34,197 nt of DNA, from the NCBI GenBank assembly GCA_947627205.1, contig CANQVE010000026.1, positions 1 to 34,197 of the forward strand. Direction: 5' to 3'. This DNA comes from an uncultured Clostridia bacterium. Lineage in GTDB: Bacteria > Bacillota > Clostridia > Oscillospirales > Ruminococcaceae. The position numbers were made by a program, and so were the translations under genes. Shown in pieces: positions 3,730 through 30,036 of the stretch (positions are counted from its first letter, which is position 1; the number at the start of each line of letters is the position of its first letter). The notes under the pieces are model-generated. The model searched no databases. It had not been told where the DNA came from and saw only the letters and a program-made list of their open reading frames with translations.

Positions 3730-4184
3730 TGCTGACTGACGAGGAATACATGGAAAAAGCGCTTGCGCTGGCAAAAAAGGCTTTTGAAATGGGAGAGATA
3801 CCCGTCGGCGCGATAGTTGTAAACAAAGACGGAGAAATAATCGCTGAAGCCTATAACGAGCGCGAAATGCTTATTTCTCCCACTGCTCATGCGGAGATAC
3901 TCGCCATCGAGCGCGCCGCGAAAGCTCTTAAAAGCAGACGGCTTTCGGACTGTACTCTTTATGTAACGCTCGAACCGTGTCCTATGTGCGCGGGGGCGGT
4001 AATAAACGCCTGTTTAAAGCGCCTTGTTTACGGAGCGTTTGACGAGAAAAACGGCGCCTGCGCTTCGGTAGTGGCATTGTTTGACGAAAAATTTACACAC
4101 ATTCCGCGCGTAAGAAGCAGAGTTCTCGAAGAAAAATGCGGAAAAATACTCTCGGATTTTTTCGGGGATTTGCGCGGGCAATAG
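3726..4184 (+). CDS. tadA: tRNA-specific adenosine deaminase TadA
   Basis: A 152-residue zinc-dependent deaminase that converts the wobble adenosine of tRNA-Arg(ACG) to inosine in the cytoplasm. The zinc-binding HAE motif (in TAHAEILAI) and the PCPMCAGA motif supply the His, the catalytic Glu and the two Cys ligands. Length and motif spacing are typical of TadA. The start overlaps the upstream stop as ATGATG. Either the ATG at 3726 or the one at 3729 could be used, and both are consistent with translational coupling. The 68 bp after the stop contain no recognisable gene. Confidence 0.95.
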   Translation: MMLTDEEYMEKALALAKKAFEMGEIPVGAIVVNKDGEIIAEAYNEREMLISPTAHAEILAIERAAKALKSRRLSDCTLYVTLEPCPMCAGAVINACLKRLVYGAFDEKNGACASVVALFDEKFTHIPRVRSRVLEEKCGKILSDFFGDLRGQ

Positions 4185-4252
4185 AAAACAGGTCATTCGG
4201 AAAGACGCATATTTTTCCGATAATCTAAAATCAGATCGGGGAAAACATCAGA

Positions 4253-5701
4253 ATGGGAGAAAAGCCTAATTCACAGAACAGATACCGTACTCTCGCGGGC
4301 AATATCATAATATTGGGCATAGGACAGTTCAGCTCCAAGCTCCTTGTGTATGTAATGCTGAAATTCTACACAAGTATGCTCGGACCGGCGGGCTATGGCG
4401 ATATGACAAACCTCATAAATGCGGGTGCGCTTCTCATCTCGGTTTTCTCGCTGTCCATCGCAGAGGGCGTATTGCGTTTCGGTCTTGAAAAGAACAACAA
4501 CGGTGGTATGGTGTTTTCTATCGGGATAAATGTTGCGGTGTGCGGGTGCGTTGTATTTGCCGCGTTTGTGCCGCTGGTAGGGCTTATCCCGATGCTTAAA
4601 GGCTATGAATGGATGCTGTTCATCTACGTCCTGGCGGGCGCGGTCAAAGAAGTGTGCGGAATATATGTCAGGGCAAGAGTTTCCGTAAAGCTGTTTGCGG
4701 TAGACGGCATACTGACTACCGTTTCAATGATAGTATTCAACCTTGTTCTGCTCGGAATTTTCGGGCTGGGAATAAACGGTTATATCTGGTCGGTCGTTCT
4801 GAGCAATCTGGCTTCGGTCATTTTCCTCAACATAACGGCAAAACTCTACAAGCGCTATAGACCTGTAGGAAACGACAAAACGCTTTATGTTTCAATGCTC
4901 CGATACAGCATACCGCTTATGCCGACGACGATAATGTGGTGGATAATAAATATGTCGGACGGATTTATGGTCACTTCTTTTATCGGGAGCGACGCAAACG
5001 GTATTTACGGGTTTGCCTATAAATTTCCGAACCTCGCGGCTGTAGTAGTAGGCATTTTTGCGCAGGCATGGCATATGTCTGCCATAACCGAAAGGAACTC
5101 GCGCACCGTTTCAAACTTCTACTCGAATATTTTCAGTATGATGCAGACGGTCGTTTTTATCGCCTGCGCGGGGATAATGCTGATATTAAGACCTGTCATT
5201 ATGCCGTTTTTCGGAACGGAAGAATTCGCTCCTGCATATTTATATGTTCCGACGCTGTTAGGCGCGGTAATTTTCCAGTGCTTCAACAACTTTTTGTCAA
5301 GCATATACGAGGCTTCGAGAAAAACTACCCATGCGCTCATTTCTTCGGCGATAGGCGCGGGAGCTAATATAATTTTAAACCTCCTGCTTATTCCGACTAT
5401 GGGAATAATGGGCGCGGCTGTCGCGACGTTTATGAGCTATCTTATCGTATTTATCTACAGGGTTATAGATACAAAGAAGTTACTTTACATGACGATATAC
5501 TGGCTGAAAATCATTGTAAATATCCTGCTTCTTACGGGCATGGCGTGTTCGATAATGTTTTTAGAGTTCGGTCTGCTGCAGAATGTTATAAATGCGCTCG
5601 TTTTCATTATTATAGTTGCGCTGAACTTTAAGACCTGCATTCAGGCGGTTAGGTTGGTTTTAAACAAGAAAAAGGAAAAGAAAGATGAAACAGTTTCTTG
5701 A
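4253..5701 (+). CDS. Polysaccharide/lipid-linked oligosaccharide flippase (MOP superfamily, Wzx/RfbX-like)
   Basis: A 482-residue integral membrane protein with about 12-14 hydrophobic helices spread over its whole length, starting with NIIILGIGQFSSKLLVYVML. The N-terminus (GPAGYGDMTNLINAGALLIS) and the central SIPLMPTTIMWWIINMSDGF stretch resemble polysaccharide biosynthesis proteins of the MATE-like MOP superfamily. These move undecaprenyl-linked sugars across the membrane. The substrate cannot be told from sequence, and no glycosyltransferase cluster lies nearby. The ribosome binding site is modest: GGGG at 4238-4241, 11 bp from the ATG. The 3' end overlaps rimM by 17 bp, so the two are co-transcribed. 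A lipid II flippase role (MurJ-like) is a less likely alternative. Confidence 0.8.
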   Translation: MGEKPNSQNRYRTLAGNIIILGIGQFSSKLLVYVMLKFYTSMLGPAGYGDMTNLINAGALLISVFSLSIAEGVLRFGLEKNNNGGMVFSIGINVAVCGCVVFAAFVPLVGLIPMLKGYEWMLFIYVLAGAVKEVCGIYVRARVSVKLFAVDGILTTVSMIVFNLVLLGIFGLGINGYIWSVVLSNLASVIFLNITAKLYKRYRPVGNDKTLYVSMLRYSIPLMPTTIMWWIINMSDGFMVTSFIGSDANGIYGFAYKFPNLAAVVVGIFAQAWHMSAITERNSRTVSNFYSNIFSMMQTVVFIACAGIMLILRPVIMPFFGTEEFAPAYLYVPTLLGAVIFQCFNNFLSSIYEASRKTTHALISSAIGAGANIILNLLLIPTMGIMGAAVATFMSYLIVFIYRVIDTKKLLYMTIYWLKIIVNILLLTGMACSIMFLEFGLLQNVINALVFIIIVALNFKTCIQAVRLVLNKKKEKKDETVS

Positions 5702-6194
5702 AATTGCAAAAATAGTTGCCGCTCACGGTATCCGCGGAGAGGTCAAGTGTCAGTATTACTGCGACGCTCCCGAAATTCTCTGCGAGTTTGAAACGCTTTA
5801 TCTGAACAAAGGAAAAACGCCCGTTACGATAACACGCGCTTATGTACACAAAAATGTGGTGATAATAAAGCTCGACGGCGTTGATACTATAGAAGAAGCG
5901 CAAAAGTATATCGGGAAAATGCTTTATATGGACAGAAACGACGTAGAACTTCCAGAGGACGTTTATTTCATACAGGATATCATAGGGCTTACGGTAAAAA
6001 ACGCCGAGACGGGCGAGGTCTACGGGAAAATATCGGACGTTTACCAAAACGGTGCTACTGACGTTTATTCGATAAAGAAAGAAAACGGAAAGGAGCTTAT
6101 GTTTCCGTATATAGACGACGTCGTTAAAAAAATTGACATTGAAGCGGGAGAAATTCTGATAATCCCGCTTGAGGGGCTGTTTGATGAGGATTGA
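5685..6194 (+). CDS. rimM: Ribosome maturation factor RimM
   Basis: A 169-residue 16S rRNA processing factor that binds ribosomal protein uS19 and helps mature the 30S head. The N-terminal RimM domain begins with LEIAKIVAAHGIRGEVKC, the family hallmark. The C-terminal PRC-barrel holds YFIQDIIGLTVK and ELMFPYIDDVVKKID. AAGGAAAAG lies just upstream of the ATG, inside the preceding flippase gene. The trmD start overlaps its 3' end, the normal rimM-trmD arrangement in bacteria. Here, however, trmD is followed by era and not by rplS. Confidence 0.95.
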   Translation: MKQFLEIAKIVAAHGIRGEVKCQYYCDAPEILCEFETLYLNKGKTPVTITRAYVHKNVVIIKLDGVDTIEEAQKYIGKMLYMDRNDVELPEDVYFIQDIIGLTVKNAETGEVYGKISDVYQNGATDVYSIKKENGKELMFPYIDDVVKKIDIEAGEILIIPLEGLFDED

Positions 6195-7146
6195 TATAGC
6201 GACGCTGTTTCCCGATATGTGCGAAAGGGTGTTCGGCGAAAGCATTGTCGGGCGCGGCATTAAAAACGGGTATCTCGAAGTTTATGCGCACAATATCAGA
6301 GATTATACGAACGACAAGCATAAAAACGTTGACGACAAGCCCTTTGGCGGCGGCACGGGAATGGTAATGCAGGCTCAGCCTGTTTATGACTGCATAAAAG
6401 CAATAGCGGCGCTGCACAAGACACCTCCCCGCATAATTTATCTCTCTCCGCAGGGAAAGACGCTGACGCAGGCTAAAATATGCGAGCTTGCAAAAGAAAG
6501 CGGGCTTATTCTTCTTTGCGGGCATTATGAGGGAATAGACGAGAGAGTTATAGAAGAACTTAATGCCGAGGAAATTTCGATAGGAGATTATGTGCTTACG
6601 GGCGGAGAATTGCCCGCGCTTGTGCTTACTGACGCAATAGCACGTTTACAGCCCGGGGTGCTTCCCAACGAGGACGCCTACAGCATAGAGAGCCACTATG
6701 ACGGGCTTCTTGAATATCCGCAATATTCGCGCCCCGAGATATGGAAAGAACGGAAAGTTCCCGAAATATTGCTTTCGGGAGATCATAAACAGGTCGTTGA
6801 ATGGCAGAGGAAAATGTCGCTCGAAAACACCAGAAAAAAGCGCCCCGACTTATACGGGGCGTATATCCAAAAAGCTCTTGAGAGTTTTATTTGCGGTATG
6901 AAAACGGCGTGCGGCATTCCCGATGACATATCATTTTCAACCGTTTCCCTGCCCGAAGAAATGTTAAAACGGGTAAAGCGAGGAAAGCTGAGAATGCTCG
7001 ATATTGATAAGGAAAAGGGAGAATACGTTATTCTGACGGATGAGCAGGAATTACCTAAATTTACGGTAATAATAACCGAAAAACTTTTGAACGGCGTAAA
7101 ATTCAGGCTCTTATACAAACCTAAAAAGGAAGAAACAAATGACTAA
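6184..7146 (+). CDS. trmD: tRNA (guanine-N1-)-methyltransferase TrmD with a C-terminal extension
   Basis: A 320-residue SPOUT enzyme that makes m1G37 in tRNAs to prevent frameshifting. Family motifs are clear: MRIDIATLFPDM at the start, FGGGTGMVMQ, LLCGHYEGIDERV and the knot motif GDYVLTGGELPALVL. The ATG at 6184 is chosen because MRIDIATLFP is the canonical N-terminus; a TTG at 6169 would add five residues. TrmD normally ends soon after the KRPDLYG stretch (here about residues 219-225). This protein continues for about 90 further residues with ILTDEQELPKFTVIITEKLL, an extension I do not recognise. It overlaps rimM by 11 bp and era by 8 bp. Confidence 0.93.
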   Translation: MRIDIATLFPDMCERVFGESIVGRGIKNGYLEVYAHNIRDYTNDKHKNVDDKPFGGGTGMVMQAQPVYDCIKAIAALHKTPPRIIYLSPQGKTLTQAKICELAKESGLILLCGHYEGIDERVIEELNAEEISIGDYVLTGGELPALVLTDAIARLQPGVLPNEDAYSIESHYDGLLEYPQYSRPEIWKERKVPEILLSGDHKQVVEWQRKMSLENTRKKRPDLYGAYIQKALESFICGMKTACGIPDDISFSTVSLPEEMLKRVKRGKLRMLDIDKEKGEYVILTDEQELPKFTVIITEKLLNGVKFRLLYKPKKEETND

Positions 7147-8041
7147 AAACGTTTTTATAGCAATAACAGGCAGACCGAATGCGGGAAAAAGTTCGCTTAC
7201 AAATCTGCTTGTGGGAGAAAAGATATCCATAGTGAGCGAAAAACCGCAGACAACGCGAAACCGTATAAACGGCGTTCTTACAAAGGGAGATACGCAGTTT
7301 GTGTTTATTGATACTCCCGGGTTTTTAAAGCCGCGGACAAAACTTGCCGAACACATGGTAAAAGCCGTCAGGACAAGCGTAGATGATGTTGATGTTGCAA
7401 TTCTTATGGCGGACGCTACTAAAAAACTTTCCGCAGTAGAACAAGAACTCGCGCGGTCGTTTGCTTCTCATAACACAAAGGTCATACTGCTTCTGAACAA
7501 AATTGACCTTGTAAAATCAAAAGAGGAGCTTCTGCCGCTCCTCGACGAATACAGCAAGCTCTACAGCTTTGAGGAAATAATTCCGATAAGCGTTAAAAAG
7601 CGGATAAACACCGAGCTTATTATGCCCCTGCTCGAAAAATATGCAGTTGAGGGAGAGCATTTCTTCCCCGACGACATCGCCACAGACCGCACGGAAAGGT
7701 TTTTATGCAGTGAGCTTATACGCGAAAAGCTCCTTTGGACGATGCAGCAGGAGATCCCCCACGGGACGGCTGTAGACATAGAGAGCTTTTCTTCCCGCAC
7801 AAATAAAAACAACGCCGAAGTCATAGATATCGGCGCGGTAATAATATGCGAAAAACAATCCCACAAGGGAATGATTATCGGAAAAGGCGGAGAACGTCTG
7901 AAACAGATAGGTTCTCTTGCGAGAAAAGATATTGAAGATATGCTCGACGCAAAGGTCAATCTTCAGATCTTTGTAAAAGTAAAGGAAAACTGGCGCGACA
8001 ACGAGCGCTTTATAACCGACAACAAGATAGCCGACGACTAG
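7139..8041 (+). CDS. era: GTPase Era
   Basis: A 300-residue essential GTPase that binds the 3' end of 16S rRNA during 30S assembly. The G domain shows G1 GRPNAGKSS, G3 DTPG and G4 NKID. The C-terminal type II KH domain shows the GxxG loop (IIGKGGERLKQIG), which binds the rRNA tail. Length is typical. The start lies within the end of trmD. The final bases overlap the 3' end of the convergent XRE gene by 4 bp. Confidence 0.96.
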   Translation: MTKNVFIAITGRPNAGKSSLTNLLVGEKISIVSEKPQTTRNRINGVLTKGDTQFVFIDTPGFLKPRTKLAEHMVKAVRTSVDDVDVAILMADATKKLSAVEQELARSFASHNTKVILLLNKIDLVKSKEELLPLLDEYSKLYSFEEIIPISVKKRINTELIMPLLEKYAVEGEHFFPDDIATDRTERFLCSELIREKLLWTMQQEIPHGTAVDIESFSSRTNKNNAEVIDIGAVIICEKQSHKGMIIGKGGERLKQIGSLARKDIEDMLDAKVNLQIFVKVKENWRDNERFITDNKIADD

Positions 8042-8700
8042 AGCTTTTTAAGTTCCTTTTCGACATTTGTAACGACCGAAAACAGCGCGGTGCTTTGCTT
8101 TGGATATTCGCGCTCTATACGGGAGTTTGTTATTTTTTCATCGGCTGTTCCCTCTTTTTCGGCGGTCTTTGCCGCAACGTCTTCGAGGCTAAGCTCTGCA
8201 AGCGTTATTCCCGAAAGGCTCTCACGCGGAACGGAAAACAGGTTTTCGTCGTTTTCCCCGCCCGCGCTGTAGACCATTCTGAATGCACGGTAGACTGCCG
8301 TCAGCATATAGTTTCCGACCGACCTTGCGAGCTTTTGGTTATTGGTTTTCATAAGCAGTGAAAACACGACTTCTAATGCGTTTGTGATCAGCTTTTTTCT
8401 GAGCATTATCCCCGCGGAAGAAGTATTTACAACGGCGTTTTCATTTACTGCACTTTCTTCAAGCTCGGCTTCTTTAACGACTGCGCCGTTTCGAGAATTG
8501 CTTCTTCCGAGCAGATAATCTACGGAAACGTTATAGAAATCCGCTGCCTGTATCAGAAAATCAAGACCGCATTCGCGCTTTCCGTTTTCATAATGCGACA
8601 AAAGCGCCTGGGCAACGCCGAGTTGGTCTGCGGCCTCTTTTTGTCTTAATCCGCGTTCTTTTCTAAGCAGTTTTAAAATTCTCGGAAAATCTTTATTCAT
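8038..8700 (-). CDS. XRE-family transcriptional regulator
   Basis: A 220-residue protein with an N-terminal helix-turn-helix of the XRE/Cro type at residues about 7-65 (RKERGLRQKEAADQLGVAQALLSHYENGKR). It ends in the common FYNVSVDYLLGRS tail of such domains. The remaining 150 residues are unrecognised. They contain a hydrophobic-amphipathic stretch (LITNALEVVFSLLMKTNNQK) that could mediate dimerisation. It is convergent with era and divergent from the histidine phosphatase gene, with GGAGAG upstream of its ATG and its own consensus promoter. Targets are unknown; autoregulation is plausible for the family but no operator is evident. Confidence 0.85.
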   Translation of the reverse strand: MNKDFPRILKLLRKERGLRQKEAADQLGVAQALLSHYENGKRECGLDFLIQAADFYNVSVDYLLGRSNSRNGAVVKEAELEESAVNENAVVNTSSAGIMLRKKLITNALEVVFSLLMKTNNQKLARSVGNYMLTAVYRAFRMVYSAGGENDENLFSVPRESLSGITLAELSLEDVAAKTAEKEGTADEKITNSRIEREYPKQSTALFSVVTNVEKELKKL

Positions 8701-22118: not shown

Positions 22119-22796
22119 ATGGCGATCGTACTTATAAGAGCGGTGGTTCTCTATATCGTTATAACATTTTCTCTAAGGCTTATGGGCAAAAGACAGCTCG
22201 GAGAGCTTCAGCCCTCCGAGCTTGTGGTTACAATTCTTATCTCAAACATTGCGGCTATTCCCGTTGAGGATATAAGCGTTCCCATGATAATGGGCATTGT
22301 GCCTATTCTGACGCTTGTTTGTCTTGATGTCGTCATGTCGGGAGTTATGCTGAAATCAGCTAAGATAAGAAAACTTATGATAGGAAGTCCGCGAATAATC
22401 ATAAGCGAGGGGAAAATTCTCCAGAAAGAAATGAAACGGCTTCGCTATTCGGTAGACGACCTTTCCGAAGCTATGCGAAATCAGCAGATATTCGACATAA
22501 GCGAGATACAGTATGCGATAGTTGAAACAAACGGAAAGATAAATTTTCTTCTGAAAAAAGACTACCAGCCCGCCGAAAAGCAAGATGTAAAAGCGGGCGG
22601 TTCGACAAATGATCCCCCGTCGGTCATAATACGCGACGGTATCCGCGACCGCGACCAGCTTAAAATTATAGCTCTCGGAGAAGACTGGCTCACAAAAATA
22701 CTGAGGGAAAACGGAATAAGCGAAAGCCGTATATTTCTTATGACCGCCGACAAAAACGGGAACTACGACATTGTTGAAAAGGAGAAAGACAAATGA
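22119..22796 (+). CDS. YetF/DUF421 family membrane protein
   Basis: A 225-residue protein. The N-terminal 90 residues hold about three membrane helices (IVLIRAVVLYIVITFSLRLM and following) with the family signature RLMGKRQLGELQPSELVVTI. The C-terminal cytoplasmic YetF domain holds LRYSVDDLSEAMRNQQIFDI and VETNGKINFLLKK. This family is widespread in spore-forming Firmicutes and its molecular role is poorly known. AAGGAG precedes the ATG. The stop overlaps the next ATG (ATGA). Confidence 0.9.
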   Translation: MAIVLIRAVVLYIVITFSLRLMGKRQLGELQPSELVVTILISNIAAIPVEDISVPMIMGIVPILTLVCLDVVMSGVMLKSAKIRKLMIGSPRIIISEGKILQKEMKRLRYSVDDLSEAMRNQQIFDISEIQYAIVETNGKINFLLKKDYQPAEKQDVKAGGSTNDPPSVIIRDGIRDRDQLKIIALGEDWLTKILRENGISESRIFLMTADKNGNYDIVEKEKDK

Positions 22797-23170
22797 AGCG
22801 CATTGTATTAAGCTCTGTAATTTTAGCGGTTATGTTCGTAGGTTGTTTTTATTCGGTAAAGGTAACTTGTGATTTTACCGACATGCTTATAAACCAGATC
22901 CATGAAATTGAAGAAAACTATGAAAAAGGCAACAACGAGCGCGCCGAAAGCGGCGCCGAAAAGCTGAAAGAAGAATGGGAAAAATTCGTCGACCGCTCGA
23001 TACTGATAAACGACCTCGGTCACGCCGTTGAAATAACCTCGTCAATTGCCGAAATACAATCGTTTGCCGAGGACAAGGACGACGAAATTTATGCCTCCTG
23101 CGACAGAGCAAAAGCACAGATAGATATGTTCAGGGATATGCAGGTGCCGTCTATATGGAAAATCTTATAG
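22793..23170 (+). CDS. DUF4363 family protein
   Basis: A 125-residue protein with one N-terminal hydrophobic helix (IVLSSVILAVMFVGCFYSV), which could be a membrane anchor or lipoprotein signal. A soluble helical domain follows, with IHEIEENYEKGNNERAESG and LINDLGHAVEITSSIAE. It matches the DUF4363 pattern, commonly found beside YetF genes in Clostridia, and is translationally coupled to YetF here. The function is unknown. Its 3' end overlaps that of the convergent GH18 3' fragment by 6 bp. Confidence 0.8.
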   Translation: MKRIVLSSVILAVMFVGCFYSVKVTCDFTDMLINQIHEIEENYEKGNNERAESGAEKLKEEWEKFVDRSILINDLGHAVEITSSIAEIQSFAEDKDDEIYASCDRAKAQIDMFRDMQVPSIWKIL

Positions 23171-23601
23171 CTTTGCTACCTCAAATGCATTCAGAGCGAT
23201 AAGCCTGTTCGGAACATAACAGCGGTTTATTGTCCACCAGCTTGCTCCCGCAAGGTCGAACTCATCTACAAGCCCGAGTTTTGCGGTTATGCTTCGCGGA
23301 TCGTCAAACCAGATGACTTTTCTGACGCCGTTGTTGGTATAATAAAAATAAGGCGTCTGCGTTTTTTCATCATAAAGTATCTCGGCGTTATTTGCTATGG
23401 CTATTTCTGTAGCTTCAGTAAAGCCTATGCTCCTTGCGGCAGTACCGCGCATATAAGGGAGCGTCCATTCATAGCCGTAATTCGGCATTCCCATTATTAT
23501 TTTCTGCGAGGGTATTTCACTGACCGCATAGCTTAATACTTTTCTTACTTCTTCTATCGGCTGGACGGACATAGGCGCGCTGTAGGTATATCCCCATTCA
23601 T
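23165..23601 (-). CDS. 3' segment of an interrupted YaaH/SleL-like GH18 gene
   Basis: This encodes the last 144 or so residues of a GH18 spore-type peptidoglycan hydrolase. It reads EWGYTYSAP, then MSVQPIEEVRKVLSYAV, GMPNYGYEWTLPY and finally GASWWTINR, the last conserved strand of the barrel. Conservation begins exactly at the 7-bp core (23595-23601). The first ATG within it is at 23572 but has no ribosome binding site and would start mid-domain, so the piece is not expected to make a functional protein alone. The frame is closed by TGA upstream inside the element. In-frame joining to the 5' segment at 27556 gives a 423-residue enzyme. Confidence 0.92.
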
Positions 23602-23616
23602 CTGTATAAATATGAT
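23595..23616. other. Attachment site, recombinase-proximal junction
   Basis: The core CATTCAT (23595-23601) is shared with 27556-27562. Inside the element it is followed after 2 bp by GTATAA (23604-23609) and ATGAT (23612-23616). These mirror TTATAC and ATCAT at the other junction. To the left lies conserved GH18 coding sequence. Confidence 0.85.
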
Positions 23617-23626
23617 AACAACAAAG

Positions 23627-25192
23627 TCAACTTGTTTCTTTATTCTTTTCGGGTAAACGAGGAAACACTCCTAGGGTAAAGCTGTCTGCTCTGCGGTTTT
23701 TTTCGGCGTTCTTTTCATAGACTATTCTCGCGAAAACGGCTTTCAGAAGTCTGTTCTTACCTTGCGTGTCAATATCGCCGTATATCTTTGTCAGGTGTCC
23801 TACGGCAGGAACAGACCTGTTTTCCGAGCGCTTGTTCATATTTTGAAGCTCCGAACTTTGCAAGGCTGTTTTTTCTTCAAGCTCCGATATGCGTTCACCT
23901 ACTTCTTTAAGACGCTCTTTGAATGTTTTTTCGTCATATATTCCCCGCTCAAAATAGTCGTATATGTTTTCACGCTGTAAACGATATTCGGAAATTTTTG
24001 ACTTCATTTCTAAAACAGTATCTTCAATTTCGCTGTTCAGCCCCGTATGCTCCGAGGCTGTTTTTTGTATGCAGTATCCGCCCATATAGATGTTCAGTAT
24101 TTCAAGCAGCCGTTTTTCCACAAGCTCAAACGGCGAGGAAACACATTTACAGCCTGCGGTATTGCAGGCAATATACGCTCTTTTTCCGCCATCAGCAGAA
24201 CGATAGGTCATCAAATGTCCGCATTTCGCGCAGTATAAAAGCCCTGCCAGAGGATTTCTGAGAGCCGTTTTGTATTTTATCGGAGCATGGCTGTTTTGTG
24301 TGATAATCTCCTGTGCCTTGTAAAATAATTCTTCGGACACTATCGGCTCGTGACGTCCGTTTGAAATAACAGCGTCTTTTGCCGTTTGGCGCGTTTTCTT
24401 TTTCACTCCGTCGGGGGATATTTTCTTTTTTACTTTTCTGTATCCGTATCTTATCTTCCCGATATACACGGGATTTGTAAGAATGTTCCTTATGCCGTAT
24501 GCAGTGGGGCTTGTTCCCTGCGGGAATATACAAAGCTCGCCTAAACGTTTTGCAATGGCTTTAAATCCGAGGCGTTTTCTAATGCCGTTTATTTCCGTTC
24601 CGTATACATACCACTCAAAAACGGCGCGGACAATTTTTGCCTGCTCTTCTATTATTTCAAGAGTAAATCCTTTTTCATTTTCGAGCTTCACTTTTTTATA
24701 GCCAAACGGCGCTATGCTCCCCAGAAACTTTCCCTCTTTTGCAGAAGCCTCGCGTCCCCGTATAAGCCGGCGGTTTGTAGCAGTAAATTCACGCCGAGCC
24801 ATAAACAATCCGAACTCAAAATATTCTTCGTCAAACTCGTTTGTCGGATCATATATTTTTAATGGGGTGATTATCTTTGTTCCCGACGCACCAAACGTTT
24901 GTGCCACAAGACCTTGGTCCATTGTATCGCCTCGCGCAAGACGTTCTATCTCCATTACAAGCACGCCCTCCCAAACTCCCGCGCCGACCTCGGACAAAAG
25001 TTTTTTCATTTGAGGGCGGGCTGAAATTGTCTCACCCGACACTATTTCCTCATAAACCGCGCCGACTGTTATGTTCATCTTTTGCGCAAGCTCCAGCAGA
25101 GCGATCTTATGTCTCAAAAGCGTTTCTCCCCCGCCGTGCGCCTCGGCTTCGATATCTGCGCGGGATTTCCTAAGGTATATTGCACAGAACAT
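23627..25192 (-). CDS. Large serine recombinase (site-specific integrase/excisionase)
   Basis: A 521-residue recombinase. The N-terminal resolvase domain begins AIYLRKSRADIE with nucleophile Ser10 and has ARPQMKKLLSEV and the EIERLARG motif. A recombinase DNA-binding domain follows, with APFGYKKVKL, AIAKRLGE and YGIRNILTNPVYIGKIRYG. Next is a zinc ribbon (CAKCGHL and CNTAGCKC) and a C-terminal coiled coil (about residues 395-465) of the type that controls direction. It is in the same orientation as the interrupted gene. Its stop lies 25 bp from the core, as in SprA and SpoIVCA arrangements. It has its own short upstream region after a terminator, with only a weak SigA-like promoter (TATAAT without a good -35). 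Confidence 0.95.
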   Translation of the reverse strand: MFCAIYLRKSRADIEAEAHGGGETLLRHKIALLELAQKMNITVGAVYEEIVSGETISARPQMKKLLSEVGAGVWEGVLVMEIERLARGDTMDQGLVAQTFGASGTKIITPLKIYDPTNEFDEEYFEFGLFMARREFTATNRRLIRGREASAKEGKFLGSIAPFGYKKVKLENEKGFTLEIIEEQAKIVRAVFEWYVYGTEINGIRKRLGFKAIAKRLGELCIFPQGTSPTAYGIRNILTNPVYIGKIRYGYRKVKKKISPDGVKKKTRQTAKDAVISNGRHEPIVSEELFYKAQEIITQNSHAPIKYKTALRNPLAGLLYCAKCGHLMTYRSADGGKRAYIACNTAGCKCVSSPFELVEKRLLEILNIYMGGYCIQKTASEHTGLNSEIEDTVLEMKSKISEYRLQRENIYDYFERGIYDEKTFKERLKEVGERISELEEKTALQSSELQNMNKRSENRSVPAVGHLTKIYGDIDTQGKNRLLKAVFARIVYEKNAEKNRRADSFTLGVFPRLPEKNKETS

Positions 25193-25243
25193 AATTACAC
25201 CTCGTTTTAAGATAGTGTTAAATTATATTCGGCATACAGCTTG
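25193..25243 (-). promoter_or_regulatory. Short recombinase upstream region
   Basis: This contains GAGGTG 5-10 bp before the recombinase ATG and a -10-like TATAAT. No acceptable -35 lies 16-18 bp away. Since a terminator immediately precedes it, any promoter must sit here. A non-SigA (for example sporulation) promoter is possible, but I cannot identify one with confidence. Confidence 0.4.
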
Positions 25244-25285
25244 TAAAAACACTGCCGCCGTACCCCGAAACGGGCGCGGCGGCGG
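25244..25285 (-). terminator. GC-rich terminator between the OB-fold lipoprotein gene and the recombinase gene
   Basis: CTGCCGCCG (25252-25260) pairs with CGGCGGCGG (25277-25285), with one mismatch and an inner CCCCG/CGGG stem. On the minus strand five T residues follow. On the plus strand TTTT follows, so it may work both ways. Confidence 0.8.
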
Positions 25286-25302
25286 TTTTATGTTAAATTA
25301 CA

Positions 25303-26202
25303 TTATGGGTTGCAAATTTTACAAGGACTGTAGCCTTGTGCTATTGCGCTTTCGCGGCTGTCGACAGTGCCGTAATTTTCGGGCTTTATCTTCTTTACGG
25401 AACTGCAGTCGGGACGGTGGAACTTCTTTGTAGAAATGTTAAGAACGTATGTATCGGAAGTCGGATTCTCCTTAGGGACACTGCTCGAAGCGGGAGCTTT
25501 ATCGGGAACTGAAGAACTGTTCGGCTTTGAGGAGCTTGCGGTTTTTGAAGAACTTGCGGGCTTTGATGAACTTGCGGGCTTTGAAGAGCTTGCAGGAACA
25601 GAAGAGCTTTCAAGAATGGATGAACTTTCGGTAATAGAAGAACTTTCAACTTTTGAAGAACTACTGCTTGTTTCGATGTCTGAAAATTCCGAAGAACTCG
25701 GCTGTTCGGGTTCGCTTTGCTGAGAACTGAATTCACTTTCAGAAAGAATTTCGTTCCTTTCGGGCAATGTTTCGGAAGATACATGGTCAAATGCAATAAG
25801 AGAACAATTTTTCAGGGTGACTAATCCCGAAGAAAAAGAATCGAGCTTTCCGTTTATTATGACAATATCATTCTCATTAACGCCGTCAAGATCATGCAGA
25901 CCACCGAAAATACAAACCACTCTTTCTTTTTTGTCCTGATGACCGAACAAAAATCCGATATTAAAGATGATACTGTTTGAATAAAGGTCGTCTTTCTCTT
26001 GTATAACGCCGAATAAAGTCAAAGATTCACCGCTGTCGTGGAGACTTCCGTCCTGAAACAAGCTGTAAAAATCATAAAGATTATAAATGTTTTCATCTGT
26101 CCAGCTTCCGCTTTGGGGCGTATATTTGGGAGTCGAACCGTCTGTGCACCCGCAGAGCAGGACAACGCAAAGCAAGACCGATAAGAACATCTTCCACTTC
26201 AT
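25303..26202 (-). CDS. Ser-rich lipoprotein: OB-fold domain plus C-terminal Cys/His motif (element cargo)
   Basis: A 299-residue exported protein. The signal peptide ends in LLCGC with the lipidated Cys near residue 19. Residues about 40-155 look like an OB-fold of the tRNA_anti-like class (LTLFGVIQEKDD, VNENDIVIINGKLDSFSSG, VTLKNCSLI). A Ser-rich linker contains six-residue repeats of the SSSKPA type, encoded by an 18-bp tandem repeat near 25515-25680. The C-terminus has FHRPDCSSVKKI and GYSPCKICNP, a His-Cys-CxxC putative metal site also known at the end of secreted nucleases and metallo-beta-lactamase-fold proteins. The ATG at 26202 is preceded by AAGGAG; the longer frame adds a non-signal N-terminus. 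Function unknown. Confidence 0.75.
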   Translation of the reverse strand: MKWKMFLSVLLCVVLLCGCTDGSTPKYTPQSGSWTDENIYNLYDFYSLFQDGSLHDSGESLTLFGVIQEKDDLYSNSIIFNIGFLFGHQDKKERVVCIFGGLHDLDGVNENDIVIINGKLDSFSSGLVTLKNCSLIAFDHVSSETLPERNEILSESEFSSQQSEPEQPSSSEFSDIETSSSSSKVESSSITESSSILESSSVPASSSKPASSSKPASSSKTASSSKPNSSSVPDKAPASSSVPKENPTSDTYVLNISTKKFHRPDCSSVKKIKPENYGTVDSRESAIAQGYSPCKICNP

Positions 26203-26241
26203 TATGTAATTCTCCTTTATTTTTTGTTTTCCGAACAATTT

Positions 26242-26265
26242 TTCAAAGCAGGTAAATGCTTTGAA
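26242..26265. promoter_or_regulatory. Perfect 9-bp inverted repeat between divergent cargo genes (candidate operator)
   Basis: TTCAAAGCA (26242-26250) and TGCTTTGAA (26257-26265) are separated by 6 bp. The repeat is 29 bp upstream of the 68-residue ORF and 40 bp upstream of the lipoprotein ATG. It could be an operator controlling either or both. Confidence 0.5.
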
Positions 26266-26294
26266 CGAATAGAAATAAACCGAGGTGATATAAA

Positions 26295-26501
26295 ATGGCG
26301 CGTACAACTCCGAAAGAAGTCATTGAAACAACTCCGAATATTATAAGGCGGATATATGACGAAAACGGCAGAGAAACAGGTTTTATTGCCGATAATTTTG
26401 CCGTCTGCACAGACGAGGAGACAGAGGATATACTAAAGCAAATAGGAAAACTGTGGGGAAATTCCTGCACGGGCAATGATAAAAAAGATGAGGAGGTTTA
26501 A
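26295..26501 (+). CDS. Small 68-residue protein of unknown function; candidate directionality factor
   Basis: The ATG at 26295 has GAGGTG 8 bp upstream. The product is soluble and acidic at the C-terminus: MARTTPKEVIETTPNIIRRI, then YDENGRETGFI and CTDEETEDILKQIGKLW. I do not recognise a family. It is the only element gene on the plus strand and the only small soluble protein in the element. Recombination directionality factors of large serine recombinases are typically small, unrelated in sequence and encoded nearby, so this is the best candidate by position. Alternatives are a regulator or unrelated cargo. Confidence 0.6.
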   Translation: MARTTPKEVIETTPNIIRRIYDENGRETGFIADNFAVCTDEETEDILKQIGKLWGNSCTGNDKKDEEV

Positions 26502-26512
26502 AACATTCGCTT

Positions 26513-27421
26513 TTATTCAAATGAAACAAGCTCCGCTGTTAAAGTACCGCCGGGACCGTCCCAATATTTATATTTTAAATCTTTTATTTTTATTTTTAAT
26601 CTCGCAAATTCTCCTCTTTCAACTACCCCCGAAAAATCATCAGCCATTTCTTTATAATTTCCGAGCCTTATTTCCGCATAGTCTCCGAGAAACGCTAATT
26701 TGGATTTTTCATCTATCCACCAATTTCCTACAACGTCAAATGCGCCAATAGGAGCAGGAAAATTAGTTGATTTAGCAGGATCTACAAAGAATATAATTTC
26801 GTCCTGATAACTGCCATAAACATCCTCAGGAACACGGTATACTATACCCTCAAGCGTAAGCTCTCCCTCAAATTCTATGTGAGATTGGCTAAAGCCGCCG
26901 TGATAAAGATAAATATCCGCGCTTTTTACGGTCAGACCGTTTTCGAGCTTATCGCCCGCTTTTACTTTGAAAAAACCGTCGGCTTCTTGCGACCAATCAA
27001 AGTCAACGCTGAAGTGCATCGTATCCCAATTTATAATATCAGGATCATCAACTGTATTATAGAAAATCGGCTTTGTATAACGGATATATGAATGTTCAAA
27101 CTTATACATACCATCTTCTACAAGTTCCCCGTCAGTAATATTCAGAACCTCGCCGTTTGGCGCTTTAAAAGAATTTTCATCCGGTTCTTCGGGCGGGTTT
27201 TCAGCAGGAGAACTGCTTTCATCAGCTGAAGAACTTTCCGTTTCAGAAGAACTCTCTGATGTTGAAGAACTATTGTCGGGAGCAGAAGAGCTTGAAGAGC
27301 TTTCAACGGAGCTGGTGTTCATGTCAGAGCTGTTGTTGATATCGGAGCGGTTTTCATCGGTCGTGTCGCAGGCAGAAAGTAAAAGGGCGCTGAGTAAAGA
27401 AACTGCAATAAATTTTTTCAT
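26513..27421 (-). CDS. Ser-rich lipoprotein, paralogue of 29035-30036 (element cargo)
   Basis: A 302-residue exported protein. The signal MKKFIAVSLLSALLLSAC ends in a lipobox with Cys18. A Ser/Glu-rich linker spans about residues 25-85. A beta-rich C-terminal domain follows, with YTKPIFYNTVDDPDIINWD, FKVKAGDKLENGLTV and FEGELTLEGIVYRVPED. The last segments, DYAEIRLGNYKEM and LKIKIKDLKYKYW, line up with the lipoprotein at 29035-30036, which shares the same signal peptide and CDTT(D/E)EN start. Function unknown. AAGGAG precedes the ATG. A promoter module nearly identical to that at 31560-31627 drives it. The gene lies at the element end opposite the recombinase. Confidence 0.8.
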   Translation of the reverse strand: MKKFIAVSLLSALLLSACDTTDENRSDINNSSDMNTSSVESSSSSSAPDNSSSTSESSSETESSSADESSSPAENPPEEPDENSFKAPNGEVLNITDGELVEDGMYKFEHSYIRYTKPIFYNTVDDPDIINWDTMHFSVDFDWSQEADGFFKVKAGDKLENGLTVKSADIYLYHGGFSQSHIEFEGELTLEGIVYRVPEDVYGSYQDEIIFFVDPAKSTNFPAPIGAFDVVGNWWIDEKSKLAFLGDYAEIRLGNYKEMADDFSGVVERGEFARLKIKIKDLKYKYWDGPGGTLTAELVSFE

Positions 27422-27460
27422 AGTGTAACACTCCTTATTAAATTTTTTTGGACAGTTTGT

Positions 27461-27528
27461 CCTTATCCAAATTATAGCATAATACTCTATAAAAGTCTAT
27501 ATTTCTTACAAAATTGTAAATATTTTTT
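27461..27528 (-). promoter_or_regulatory. Shared promoter/operator module, copy A
   Basis: Minus-strand -35 TAGACT (27499-27494) and -10 TATAAT (27476-27471) are 17 bp apart with an extended TGC. Immediately upstream is the perfect palindrome TTACAAAATTGTAA (27506-27519). The 68-bp block differs from 31560-31627 at only six positions by my alignment, and the palindrome is identical, so both probably answer to the same regulator. Confidence 0.85.
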
Positions 27529-27541
27529 ATGCTCTTTTTTT

Positions 27542-27562
27542 ATCATGTTATACCGCATTCAT
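27542..27562. other. Attachment site, distal junction
   Basis: The core CATTCAT (27556-27562) is preceded inside the element by ATCAT (27542-27546), TTATAC (27548-27553) and 2 bp. These arms are the inverted counterparts of GTATAA and ATGAT at 23604-23616 and are equidistant from the core. To the right is GH18 coding sequence. Confidence 0.85.
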
Positions 27563-28397
27563 ACGTCATAATCACCACATAGTCGGCATATTGTCCCTGG
27601 ACGGGATAATCGTGAGATTCGTAGAGTATTCCGGGCTGGTCGGCGCGGTATTTGGGCGCTACGGCGGTTATAAGCACATAATTTCCTCTGTGAAGTCTGT
27701 CGGAAAGCTCGCCGAGAAACTCGTTGTATATCTCCTTATCCTCGGGCGCAATGTATTCCATATCAAGATTTACTCCGTAATATCCCTTTCTGTCAAGCTC
27801 GTACATTATAGAATCTATAAGTCGGCGCGTTGAAGAGCTGTCCGAAAGTATCTGCGAAAGCACCTCTGTAGAAAATGTTCCGTCATAAATATTCGTAACT
27901 ACCATAAGCGGCATAACTGCGCTTCTTACGGCGCTGTAAATAAGTTCTTCATCGGGCGGCGAAATAAGCTCTCCGCTCGGCGTCACCGAATATGAAAACG
28001 GGCTTAAAAACGTAAGGAACGGCACTGCGCAATTAAGCGCTGTTTCGGTTATGTTCGGATAAGCATATCCGTTTGTAACGGCAGGTCTTCTTATAACATT
28101 GCCCGAAATGGGGATATTCACCGTTTCTCCTATTCTTAAAGCTATGGGGTTTATATCGGGGTTTGCGTTTAAAAGCTCTTCAAGAGGCACGTTAAACTCC
28201 TGCGCTATAGAATAAAGCGTCTGGTTTTCCTGTACTTTGTACCTCATTATATCCGACATTATCACAAGGCTTTGACCTACGGCAAGCCCGCTGTTGAAGC
28301 GCAGATTGTTGTCAGCAGCTATCCTGCCCGCAGGAATGGCAAACATCTGCGCCAGACCGCTCAAAGTATCTCCGCTTTTTACAGTGTAAATATACAT
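27543..28397 (-). CDS. 5' segment of an interrupted YaaH/SleL-like spore peptidoglycan hydrolase (LysM-LysM-GH18)
   Basis: The frame encodes 284 residues. LysM 1 is at about 3-47 (YTVKSGDTLSGLAQMF) and LysM 2 at about 52-96 (YKVQENQTLYSIAQEF). From about residue 105 a GH18 barrel follows, with the catalytic motif GVNLDMEY (Glu214). It stops abruptly after MTYECGIT at the element junction, leaving the barrel without its last strands. The real sequence ends at Glu280 and the last four codons belong to the element. YaaH/SleL enzymes are N-acetylglucosaminidases of the spore cortex, with about 427-430 residues; excision here would give 423. GGAGGTG precedes the ATG at 28397, and the amidase gene ends 16 bp upstream in the same operon. 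Confidence 0.93.
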   Translation of the reverse strand: MYIYTVKSGDTLSGLAQMFAIPAGRIAADNNLRFNSGLAVGQSLVIMSDIMRYKVQENQTLYSIAQEFNVPLEELLNANPDINPIALRIGETVNIPISGNVIRRPAVTNGYAYPNITETALNCAVPFLTFLSPFSYSVTPSGELISPPDEELIYSAVRSAVMPLMVVTNIYDGTFSTEVLSQILSDSSSTRRLIDSIMYELDRKGYYGVNLDMEYIAPEDKEIYNEFLGELSDRLHRGNYVLITAVAPKYRADQPGILYESHDYPVQGQYADYVVIMTYECGIT

Positions 28398-28413: not shown

Positions 28414-28929
28414 TTAGTTCTCTACGGAAATTTCTTTTCTTGCTCCTATTATGTGTATAGGAAATATATCCGCATAATTATAAGTAGACAATCTCCTGTT
28501 GCGCGAATCGTCCGTATGCGCACAGACAAAAATGTTCTGAGGTATTTTCGGATATAAGACCGACGACACAATGACCGTATGATAAAATCTTCCCTGAGAA
28601 TTTATAAGCTGTATTATATCGCCGCGCTGTATTTCTGACAGTGTGCTTTCTTCGCCGTAAACTCCCGTTCCCCTGTTTGTAAGAAGAAATTCACGGAGAA
28701 AGTTTACTCCCGTCCAGGCGGGCGCTCTGTCGTCGGAGTTTATATAATACCAGCCGTTTTCCTGTGAATAATTCATCGCTCCGCAGCCCGCGTACAAGCA
28801 CTGTGAAATATAATTTGTACAATCTCCGCCGATGTCCGAAAAATCATAAAACCGCGGGTTTCTCGCAAACGCCCAATTCAGCGCATAAATAACCGCGGCA
28901 CGGCGGTCGTAAACCGTTTCTATAAGCAT
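28414..28929 (-). CDS. Putative amidase domain protein (Amidase_6 family)
   Basis: A 171-residue protein similar to the putative amidase domain found in clostridial and bacillar proteins. It begins YDRRAAVIYALNWAFARNPRF, has the catalytic-type Cys in GGDCTNYISQCLYAG, the His in FYHTVIVSS, and CAHTDDSRNR near the end. It is likely a papain-fold cell-wall hydrolase, though no signal peptide is present, as for many mother-cell-made spore proteins. The ATG at 28929 is used because GAGGTG lies 5-10 bp upstream; an in-frame TTG at 28959 is the alternative. The interrupted YaaH-like gene follows after 16 bp. Confidence 0.82.
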   Translation of the reverse strand: MLIETVYDRRAAVIYALNWAFARNPRFYDFSDIGGDCTNYISQCLYAGCGAMNYSQENGWYYINSDDRAPAWTGVNFLREFLLTNRGTGVYGEESTLSEIQRGDIIQLINSQGRFYHTVIVSSVLYPKIPQNIFVCAHTDDSRNRRLSTYNYADIFPIHIIGARKEISVEN

Positions 28930-29034: not shown

Positions 29035-30036
29035 TTATACCACTTCAAAATCAACTATATTTGCATGATAATTAACACGTTCTGTAAACTTGATATTGTT
29101 AATAGTAATTTTGACCTTTGCGCTTGAACCGTCTTTCGGCATTTCGCTGAAATCAATATTTTTATAATCATCTGCACAGCCAAGATACATTTCATACACT
29201 TCACCGAGCGTACAAAAATCTCCGTTTAAGTCGAGACTCAATTCATCTCTGTTAAACAAAACAATAGGGAGCTTTTTAACGCTTTCGGCGTCGGGGACAA
29301 AATTTATATCGTTTGGCAAAACATATACCGCTTCTCCATCGGGAGGAACTATCCTGCACCACCCCGTCAGAGTAAGCTGTCCGTCAAACTCGGCTGTTGA
29401 TGAATAAAAATATCTCGGCAAATATGCCAATGATTCATATCTAAAAGTCGTTTCAGCTTTTTTTAAAGTAAGGTCGCCGAACTTGTCTCCCGCTTTATAC
29501 ATCTTATATTCATGCAAAACAGAGGTATCTACTCCGTTAAATTTATAATTGTCCTTATCGTATATATCGGCGTTATCTATGCTGTTATAGAAAATACCCT
29601 TTGCTTCGGAGAGATATATAAAATTGCATATTACCCCATCCCAGTTTTGCCGGTCAAAGTCTCCGCCGTTATCAATGTCATTAAGCGGCATTTGTTCATA
29701 GTATTCATCAGCATCAGACCATCTAATTGCAACAGCGTCTGTGAAATCAATGGGATAATCATGCAGAAGCTGAAATCTGTCGAGAAGATCCTTGCCTTTA
29801 AACTTTAGCTCGGCAATTATTTCTTCTTGGGTAGGTTCGGTATATTCCGAACTTGAATCTTCGGAGGAACTGTTTTCGGGAGTTGAAGAGCTGTTTTCGG
29901 AAACAGAAGAACTGCTTGAGGAAGATGAAGAGCTTTCAACGGAGCTGTTGTTGATATCGGAGCTGTTTTCCTCGGTCGTGTCACAAGCTGTAAGTAAAAG
30001 AGCGGAGAGCAATAAAATTGAAATTGATTTTTTCAT
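29035..30036 (-). CDS. Ser-rich lipoprotein, paralogue of 26513-27421
   Basis: A 333-residue exported protein with signal MKKSISILLLSALLLTAC (Cys18). A Ser-rich linker spans about residues 25-65. A C-terminal domain matches the element-borne lipoprotein in order and spacing: KGIFYNSIDNADIYD, YKAGDKFGDLTLKKA, FDGQLTLTGWCRIVP and VKITINNIKF. It also has a longer N-terminal helical portion (IIAELKFKGKDLLDRF). Function unknown. It starts 22 bp after the papain-fold protein gene and is thus driven by the promoter at 31570-31598. It is more AT-rich than the housekeeping flanks. Confidence 0.8.
   Translation of the reverse strand: MKKSISILLLSALLLTACDTTEENSSDINNSSVESSSSSSSSSSVSENSSSTPENSSSEDSSSEYTEPTQEEIIAELKFKGKDLLDRFQLLHDYPIDFTDAVAIRWSDADEYYEQMPLNDIDNGGDFDRQNWDGVICNFIYLSEAKGIFYNSIDNADIYDKDNYKFNGVDTSVLHEYKMYKAGDKFGDLTLKKAETTFRYESLAYLPRYFYSSTAEFDGQLTLTGWCRIVPPDGEAVYVLPNDINFVPDAESVKKLPIVLFNRDELSLDLNGDFCTLGEVYEMYLGCADDYKNIDFSEMPKDGSSAKVKITINNIKFTERVNYHANIVDFEVV

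What the first reader, a model, noticed from the sequence alone, without database searches (positions are those of the whole stretch)
23165..28397. A spore peptidoglycan hydrolase gene split by a 3,961-bp serine-recombinase element whose exact excision restores the reading frame
Seen: the 5' part (LysM-LysM-GH18, ending MTYE at 27558) and the 3' part (EWGYTYSAP from 23601) share the core CATTCAT in the same codon phase. Joining them across one core gives a continuous 423-codon frame with GAA TGG GGA TAT at the joint, the normal GH18 sequence. Known: YaaH/SleL is about 427-430 residues, and skin (sigK) and SPbeta (spsM) in B. subtilis are excised by large serine recombinases in the mother cell to rebuild sporulation genes. 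Inference: this is a new, minimal intervening element of the same type in a cortex-lytic or germination gene, with excision probably tied to sporulation.
Basis: partly seen in the sequence, partly recalled or inferred. Interest (0 to 1): 0.93.

Follow-up and report, generated by a model that had tools for sequence, protein, structure and literature searches.

The report
Removable insert in a spore-lysis gene
A gut bacterium carries a 4-kb removable DNA insert in the middle of a spore-wall enzyme gene; related phages and inserts split the same gene at the same spot in other spore-forming bacteria, so it looks like a domesticated phage remnant that must be cut out before the gene can work.

Summary
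Confirmed and extended. The window's LysM-LysM-GH18 (SleL/YaaH-like) gene is split at codons 280/281 (MTYE|WGY) by 3,961 bp between two in-phase ATGAATG cores; joining at one core restores 423 codons. Three sister species carry the same element there. Their detached 3' parts show 0-1 nonsynonymous against 20-29 synonymous differences per pair, so the joined protein is very probably made.

Of 43 genomes in the genus, 17 are split and 24 read through (12 state changes on the gene tree), at three core positions within about 25 bp. Ten other Clostridia, three apparently isolates, are split there too. Two elements examined are 45-55 kb prophages; the window's keeps an integrase, a 68-aa candidate directionality factor and two lipoprotein genes.

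The integrase clade looks specialised: of the 80 closest species-genome relatives kept, 54 abut this gene, an asparagine synthase or cotJC/cotJB. A contig from one isolate spans the circular (attP) junction of an asparagine-synthase element.

The operon has a sigma-K-like promoter motif in 35 of 35 genomes examined. Excision of the window's own element, and its timing in the mother cell, are inferred, not shown. It is a new, reduced variant of the skin/gin kind.

The parts
28414..28929 (-). Amidase_6 gene, first gene of the two-gene operon with the split gene
   Evidence: Pfam PF12671
28930..29000 (-). sigma-K-like promoter motif AC-N15..17-CATANNNT upstream of the operon
   Evidence: motif in 35 of 35 upstream regions of the genus; shuffles mean 0.8, max 4; sequence
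27543..28397 (-). 5' part of the LysM-LysM-GH18 (SleL/YaaH-like) gene; host codons 1-280 end at 27558
27556..27562 (-). left core ATGAATG (attL)
23595..27555 (-). intervening element, 3,961 bp counted from core to core
   Evidence: same element in G002 (3,930 bp), G005 (4,185 bp), G007 (3,986 bp)
26513..27421 (-). lipoprotein A, Ser-rich; distant paralogue of the neighbour gene 29035-30036
26295..26501 (+). 68-aa protein, candidate recombination directionality factor; present in all 8 type-I elements
   Evidence: dN/dS 0.18-0.30
25303..26202 (-). lipoprotein B with Ada-like metal-binding C-terminus
   Evidence: Pfam PF02805; found only in the four sister elements among the loci held
23627..25192 (-). 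large serine recombinase (integrase), 521 aa
   Evidence: Pfam PF00239, PF07508, PF13408; PHROG 95 integrase 1.2e-92; dN/dS 0.11-0.18
23595..23601 (-). right core ATGAATG (attR)
23165..23599 (-). 3' part of the GH18 gene; host codons 281-423 from 23596, plus stop

Best explanation
A temperate phage integrated, through a large serine integrase, into the codons for the conserved MTYE-WGY motif of a cortex-lytic gene of the SleL/YaaH family. In the ancestor of four sister species the prophage lost its phage genes but kept both att sites, the integrase and a small early gene that is probably its directionality factor. During sporulation the integrase cuts the 4-kb element out of the mother-cell chromosome, which is discarded later; this rejoins the gene into 423 codons, while the spore chromosome keeps the element. 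Shown: the anatomy, frame restoration, purifying selection on the detached half and on the integrase, descent shared with prophages at the same site, and a sequenced circular junction of a related element in another gene. Inferred: that this element itself excises, that the small gene is the RDF, and the mother-cell timing.
For: In-phase cores and open joined frame. In four sister species the detached 3' part has dN/dS 0-0.01 and the recombinase 0.11-0.18, with recombinase dS (0.29-0.45) close to host-gene dS (0.19-0.41). The four form one clade next to an intact sister. Elements at the same site in G037 and G011 are prophages. The 68-aa gene is shared by all 8 type-I elements. The integrase clade abuts three gene families in 54 of the 80 relatives kept, with 4 target changes among 69 labelled rows of the tree. 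A natural contig spans the attP junction of an asparagine-synthase element of the clade. SpoIVA in 41 of 43 genomes; sigma-K-like motif in 35 of 35 upstream regions.
Against: No joined copy in the window's own assembly. The attP inverted repeat of the window's element is weak (13 of 22 pairs, p 0.13; sisters 11-14 of 22) although it is plain in several prophages. No sporulation-type promoter was found in front of the integrase or lipoprotein A. Lipoprotein B is more diverged in G007 (dS 0.74-0.80) than the rest of the element, so the cargo has not simply co-diverged. RDF function untested; its model matched no solved fold.
Confidence: 0.8

Rival explanations
1. The gene is restored by excision, but by ordinary low-level or stress-induced excision of a phage-derived element, not by a sporulation-timed switch.
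For: Many insertions at this site look like ordinary temperate prophages with scattered occurrence: split/intact needs 12 changes on the gene tree. No sporulation-type promoter found for the integrase. The attP contig of the related element comes from an ordinary genome assembly.
Against: The target gene itself has a sigma-K-like promoter motif. The window's element has been kept through the origin of four species without phage genes, which ordinary infection does not explain.
Confidence: 0.12
2. The gene is simply inactivated; the halves are a pseudogene and the element a passive passenger.
For: The 5' ORF ends in a stop three to four codons past the core, and no excised copy is in the assembly.
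Against: The detached 3' part has 0-1 nonsynonymous against 20-29 synonymous differences in each of six pairs; split-intact pairs have the same dN/dS range as intact-intact pairs; 15 of 16 joined frames in the genus are open to the natural end.
Confidence: 0.04
3. The two halves are expressed separately and assemble into a working two-piece enzyme without DNA excision.
For: The 3' part has an in-frame ATG followed by 135 codons.
Against: No ribosome-binding site is visible in front of that ATG (sequence). The eight codons between the core and the ATG keep their amino acids while five of them vary synonymously in the four sisters. In the prophage cases the halves are 45-55 kb apart. The cut lies inside the GH18 domain.
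Confidence: 0.04

Closest known systems
gin element in gerE, Bacillus cereus ATCC 10987 (PMC5595907; abstract, introduction and discussion read)
   Same: Element without phage structural genes inside a sporulation gene, serine recombinase plus a directionality factor, short shared core, gene rebuilt.
   Different: gin is 28.6 kb with three recombinase genes; this is 4 kb with one, in another gene, another class of bacteria, and inherited by four species.
skin elements in sigK of B. subtilis and C. difficile (PMC5025042; passages)
   Same: Large serine recombinase next to one end, constitutive recombinase with separately regulated RDF in C. difficile, gene rebuilt in the mother cell.
   Different: Target is sigK; skin keeps phage genes (PMC5595907 introduction); its timing is shown by experiment, here it is inferred.
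SPbeta prophage in spsM, B. subtilis (PMC4191935; passages)
   Same: Prophage in a spore-envelope gene, excised in the mother cell; inverted repeats and a core at the att sites. The G011 and G037 elements correspond to this state.
   Different: SPbeta is an active full phage; the window's element is reduced to four genes. Target gene differs.
yin element in yabG, Clostridium botulinum (PMC10747680; passages)
   Same: Recombinase and putative small RDF, element in a late spore gene, circular form seen.
   Different: A prophage reported from one strain; not a recurrent site, not reduced.
HE-PICI integrase clade (PMC10111431; abstract start and passages)
   Same: An integrase clade with tropism for one class of genes, called regulated gene integrity.
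   Different: Tyrosine integrases in prophage late genes; here serine integrases in spore-related genes.

Membership tests
Sporulation-gene intervening elements (skin/SPbeta/gin kind) | Lies inside a sporulation gene | tested here: met
   SleL/YaaH-like by sequence; sigma-K-like promoter motif. Function of this very gene not tested.
Sporulation-gene intervening elements (skin/SPbeta/gin kind) | Direct core repeats in phase; precise excision would restore the frame | tested here: met
Sporulation-gene intervening elements (skin/SPbeta/gin kind) | Encodes its own site-specific recombinase | tested here: met
   open and under purifying selection in four species
Sporulation-gene intervening elements (skin/SPbeta/gin kind) | Encodes a directionality factor | tested here: inconclusive
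   68-aa gene co-occurs with the integrase clade with exceptions (G022, G023, G030, partial integrase in G003); no functional test, no fold match
Sporulation-gene intervening elements (skin/SPbeta/gin kind) | Excised circle or joined gene observed | tested here: inconclusive
   None for this element in its assembly; attP contig for a related element in an asparagine synthase
Sporulation-gene intervening elements (skin/SPbeta/gin kind) | Excision in the mother cell during sporulation | not testable with these tools
   needs cultured sporulating cells
Large serine recombinase family | Resolvase, Recombinase and zinc-ribbon domains | tested here: met
   Ser10 in YLRKS read from the sequence (catalytic role recalled; S10A is inactive in C. 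difficile CD1231 per PMC5025042)
Large serine recombinase family | attP with inverted repeats around the core | tested here: inconclusive
   p up to 0.002 in 8 of 15 elements tested, 0.03 in 2, not significant in 5 including the window's
SleL/YaaH cortex-lytic enzymes | Two LysM domains followed by GH18, full-length match to SleL/YaaH | tested here: met
   (intact orthologue of G042)
Prophage | Structural and packaging genes | tested here: not met
   of the four element proteins only the integrase has a strong PHROG match; met for the elements of G037 and G011

The most novel reading that the evidence does not exclude
A clade of phage integrases in Clostridia has specialised on mother-cell sporulation genes (SleL/YaaH-like GH18, cotJC, an asparagine synthase), cutting codons of a conserved motif each time, and took up the GH18 site at least twice independently. 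Some of these phages decay into tiny obligate excisable inserts that behave like DNA-level introns inherited across speciation, so that spore development in this lineage depends on phage-derived recombination at several genes at once (sigK appears split here as well).
Probability: 0.55. Interest if true: 0.85.

Novelty: new variant of a known kind. Interest (0 to 1): 0.75.

Why it matters
It shows full prophages and a reduced end-point at one and the same target site, which makes the proposed route from prophage to developmental switch testable by comparison. It gives evolutionary evidence (selection on a detached half-gene) that a programmed rearrangement works in uncultured gut bacteria. It suggests that one integrase clade is tuned to genes that are silent in growth and needed only in a doomed cell, which would explain why such insertions are tolerated. 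For annotation: many 'truncated' GH18, cotJC and asparagine synthase genes of Clostridia may not be pseudogenes.

Tried and rejected
sigK family TIGR02846: no genome over the cut-off, which led to the observation that sigK itself looks split. Sporulation-type promoters for integrase and lipoprotein A: motif not found; the region upstream of the 68-aa gene was aligned and read by eye only. Fold search of the 68-aa protein: mean pLDDT 70, best PDB match E 0.9. Excised allele in the window's own assembly: none. Ungapped attP inverted repeat for the window's element: weak. Isolated phages: 25 of 50,697 records hold a relative of the integrase at E 1e-30 or better, all under 60% identity. Literature: searches listed no report that I recognised of an intervening element in sleL/yaaH, cotJC or an asparagine synthase; I saw listings and the passages named in Closest known systems, and most subscription papers are not held. 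Misassembly was considered and rejected: the same insert is in four genomes (three named MAGs and the window's own) and comparable splits are in two complete chromosomes.

Rows dropped or handled before counts: one search used 96 rows. L093-L102 were left out because the same integrases entered as the genome search rows, and L105, L120, L129 as duplicates; 27 rows without a classified target do not enter the count of 4 target changes. L115, L118 and L170 were labelled GH18, not from the flank test; L055 was labelled cotJC by eye. In one search, 26 of 80 flanks stayed unclassified, three of them under 500 nt. One search has 38 copies: G024, G035, G019, G008 and G013 are not in it. One search tested 15 of 16 (G009 was cut by a contig end). 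The promoter control (32 of 368) contains the operon's own gene: without it the control is 11 of 333. For the scans of prophage proteins, 40 of 49 and 52 of 61 listed ORFs were given.
Full report
THE OBSERVATION. On the - strand the window holds an Amidase_6 gene (28929-28414) and directly behind it a LysM-LysM-GH18 gene that stops early (28397-27543); the rest of the GH18 domain lies 4 kb further on (to 23165). Both breaks share ATGAATG in the same codon phase (27562-27556 and 23601-23595), 3,961 bp apart. Joining at one core gives MTYE-WGY and 423 codons without a stop. The insert codes for two lipoproteins, a 68-aa protein on the other strand, and a 521-aa large serine recombinase with Resolvase, Recombinase and zinc-ribbon domains. 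Its nearest NCBIfam model, far below that model's cut-off, is XisF, the recombinase that removes the fdxN element.

THE GENE. An intact orthologue from the same genus (G042) matches PDB 4s3j 'Cortical-lytic enzyme' (2.5e-84) and 4s3k 'Spore germination protein YaaH' (1.8e-78) over nearly its whole length. The SpoIVA ATPase domain is present in 41 of 43 genomes of the genus, the window's among them. In front of the operon the pattern AC-N15..17-CATANNNT is found in 35 of 35 upstream regions examined, against a mean of 0.8 (maximum 4) in 500 shuffles of the set. In upstream regions of ORFs of 150 aa or more in the same loci it is in 32 of 368, or 11 of 333 without the operon's own gene. I read it as a sigma-K-type mother-cell promoter; the consensus is recalled.

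THE GENUS. Of 43 genomes, 16 have the gene in two parts at this motif with both parts seen, one (G019) shows only a 3' part beginning at an att-like site, 24 read through the site (22 full length, 2 cut by contig ends elsewhere), one (G008) is too incomplete and one (G013) has no match. The breaks fall at three core positions within about 25 bp: TATGAATG (8 genomes, the window's type I), TGGGGCTACACATACG (2, type II) and TATACATAC (7 with G019, type III). Joined frames were open in 16 of 16, but G025 runs into a frameshift later in its 3' part, so 15 of 16 are full length. On a tree of 38 copies split/intact needs 12 changes, of which well-supported branches alone force 9; gains and losses cannot be told apart. 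The window's species and three sisters (G002, G005, G007) form one clade (support 100/99) next to the intact G033.

SELECTION. In these four the detached 3' part differs by 20-29 synonymous and 0-1 nonsynonymous changes in each of six pairs (dN/dS 0-0.01). The 5' part has 0.01-0.04, the recombinase 0.11-0.18, the 68-aa gene 0.18-0.30 and the lipoproteins 0.17-0.39. The codons between the core and the first internal ATG also keep their amino acids while five of eight vary synonymously. In other lineages ten split-intact pairs give 0.024-0.119 for this part and seven intact-intact pairs 0.019-0.134; many of these have saturated dS. A detached half-gene without its own start is kept like this only if the joined protein is made. 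Recombinase dS (0.29-0.45) is close to that of the host gene parts (0.19-0.41), so the element has been inherited since before these species parted. Lipoprotein B against G007 (dS 0.74-0.80) is an exception, so some cargo was exchanged or evolves faster.

WHERE THE ELEMENT COMES FROM. In G037 and G011 the same gene is split by 45.5 kb and 55 kb with portal, terminase, head or tail genes: prophages. In the window's element only the recombinase has a strong phage-family match. The 68-aa gene is in all 8 type-I elements: the four mini-elements and those of G001, G009, G011 and G025. Genus-wide, 16 of 43 genomes have it: 13 on the same contig as an integrase of this clade, one (G004) with such an integrase on another contig, and two (G022, G023) without one that I saw. 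Conversely G030, and G003 with a partial integrase, lack it. It is the one gene besides the integrase that the mini-elements share with those larger elements, hence my assignment as directionality factor; nothing functional was tested, and its model (mean pLDDT 70) matched no solved fold. A separate 4.6-kb element of type III in G004 suggests that reduction happened more than once.

BEYOND THE GENUS. Eleven genomes, chosen because a GH18 half lay near a related integrase, were searched whole. In ten both halves were found, and the joined frame is open in 10 of 10, always giving MTYEWGY; in three of them the in-register core is only 5-6 nt. They include the complete chromosomes of Anaerocolumna sp. 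MB42-C2 and AGMB13025, with halves about 50 kb apart, so the split is no MAG artefact.

A SPECIALISED INTEGRASE CLADE. A scan of species genomes with the recombinase found 399 relatives, of which the best 80 were kept. In 54 of these 80 the DNA past the integrase's 3' end codes for part of one of three loci: the GH18 gene (13), an asparagine synthase (16), or cotJC (14) and cotJB on the far side of what I take to be a cotJC stub (11); 26 were unclassified. Pfam agrees on the names for one representative each. Where the flank was printed, asparagine synthase parts begin at EIFGGYPW-like and cotJC parts at E(E)LAHLEM-like residues, so these breaks too are in conserved motifs. On a tree of 96 integrases the target needs only 4 changes among 69 labelled rows. 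The window's type-I group (8 rows, support 100) sits among asparagine-synthase integrases, while types II and III sit with Lachnospiraceae-type GH18 integrases in another group (17 of 19 rows GH18), so the GH18 site was taken up at least twice. Among 80 IMG/VR contigs 22 show one of the three loci, 24 end within 120 nt and 34 show something else. That cotJC and a sporulation asparagine synthetase (asnO) are mother-cell genes in B. subtilis is recalled.

EXCISION IN THE CLADE. Clostridium sp. KNHs205 has an asparagine synthase split by such an element, with the 5' half on one large contig and the 3' half on another. A separate 11,654-bp contig of the same assembly matches the integrase end up to and including the core (99.3% over 7,946 bp) and then continues, from the same core, into the other end of the element (99.9% over 3,740 bp). 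That is the circular (attP) junction. A tandem double insertion could give the same junction; excision is the simpler reading. The inverted repeat expected at an attP has p of 0.002 or less in 8 of 15 elements tested (best G011, 20 of 22 pairs), 0.03 in two, and is not significant in five, the window's among them (13 of 22, p 0.13), where the arms look shifted by one base. No joined copy is in the window's assembly.

WHAT IT IS. By anatomy and selection it is a sporulation-gene intervening element of the skin/SPbeta/gin kind. That kind is described for sigK, spsM, spoVFB, spoVR, gerE, kamA and yabG (PMC5595907 abstract, introduction, discussion; PMC6957869, PMC10747680, PMC5025042, PMC4191935 passages). 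PMC6957869 already argues that small intervening elements are former prophages kept because the gene must be rebuilt. New here, as far as the searches show, are the target gene, the 4-kb form kept through speciation, the repeated use of one short target by several phage lineages, and the integrase clade's preference for three spore-related genes. I call it a new variant of a known kind. Not shown: excision of this element, the RDF, and the mother-cell timing.

Noticed in passing
G000:C2, about 37.3 kb (L216) and 85.2 kb (L217); also L218-L222, L226, L227: sigK itself looks split at the skin-type position. In the window's genome, G005 and G042 the C-terminal half lies about 47-60 kb before the N-terminal half on the same strand, so recombination would put the joined gene on the smaller circle; in G019 and G038 the order is the usual one with a serine recombinase beside the N half.
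   Followed up: partly
L112, L116, L117, L120, L121, L124, L125 and others: cotJC is interrupted by elements of this integrase clade in up to 25 of 80 species genomes looked at, among them Tissierella praeacuta DSM 18095 (L166).
   Followed up: partly
L158 (11,654-bp contig of Clostridium sp. KNHs205): A contig that spans the circular junction of an element sitting in an asparagine synthase gene of the same strain.
   Followed up: yes
L197 (G021), 4100-8666: Behind the 5' half of the split gene in G021 lie tail-sheath and tail-tube type genes with an AAA ATPase; whether they belong to the element is unknown, since the 3' half is on another contig.
   Followed up: no
26513-27421 and 29035-30036: Ser-rich lipoprotein family: the element's lipoprotein A and the gene just upstream of the operon are distant paralogues (31% over 186 aa, 76% over the first 29), and the family has relatives in 38 of 43 genomes of the genus.
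   Followed up: partly
22119-23170: Convergent DUF421 and DUF4363 genes follow the 3' half; the same kind of pair follows it in G017 and G036, marking the host side of the junction.
   Followed up: no
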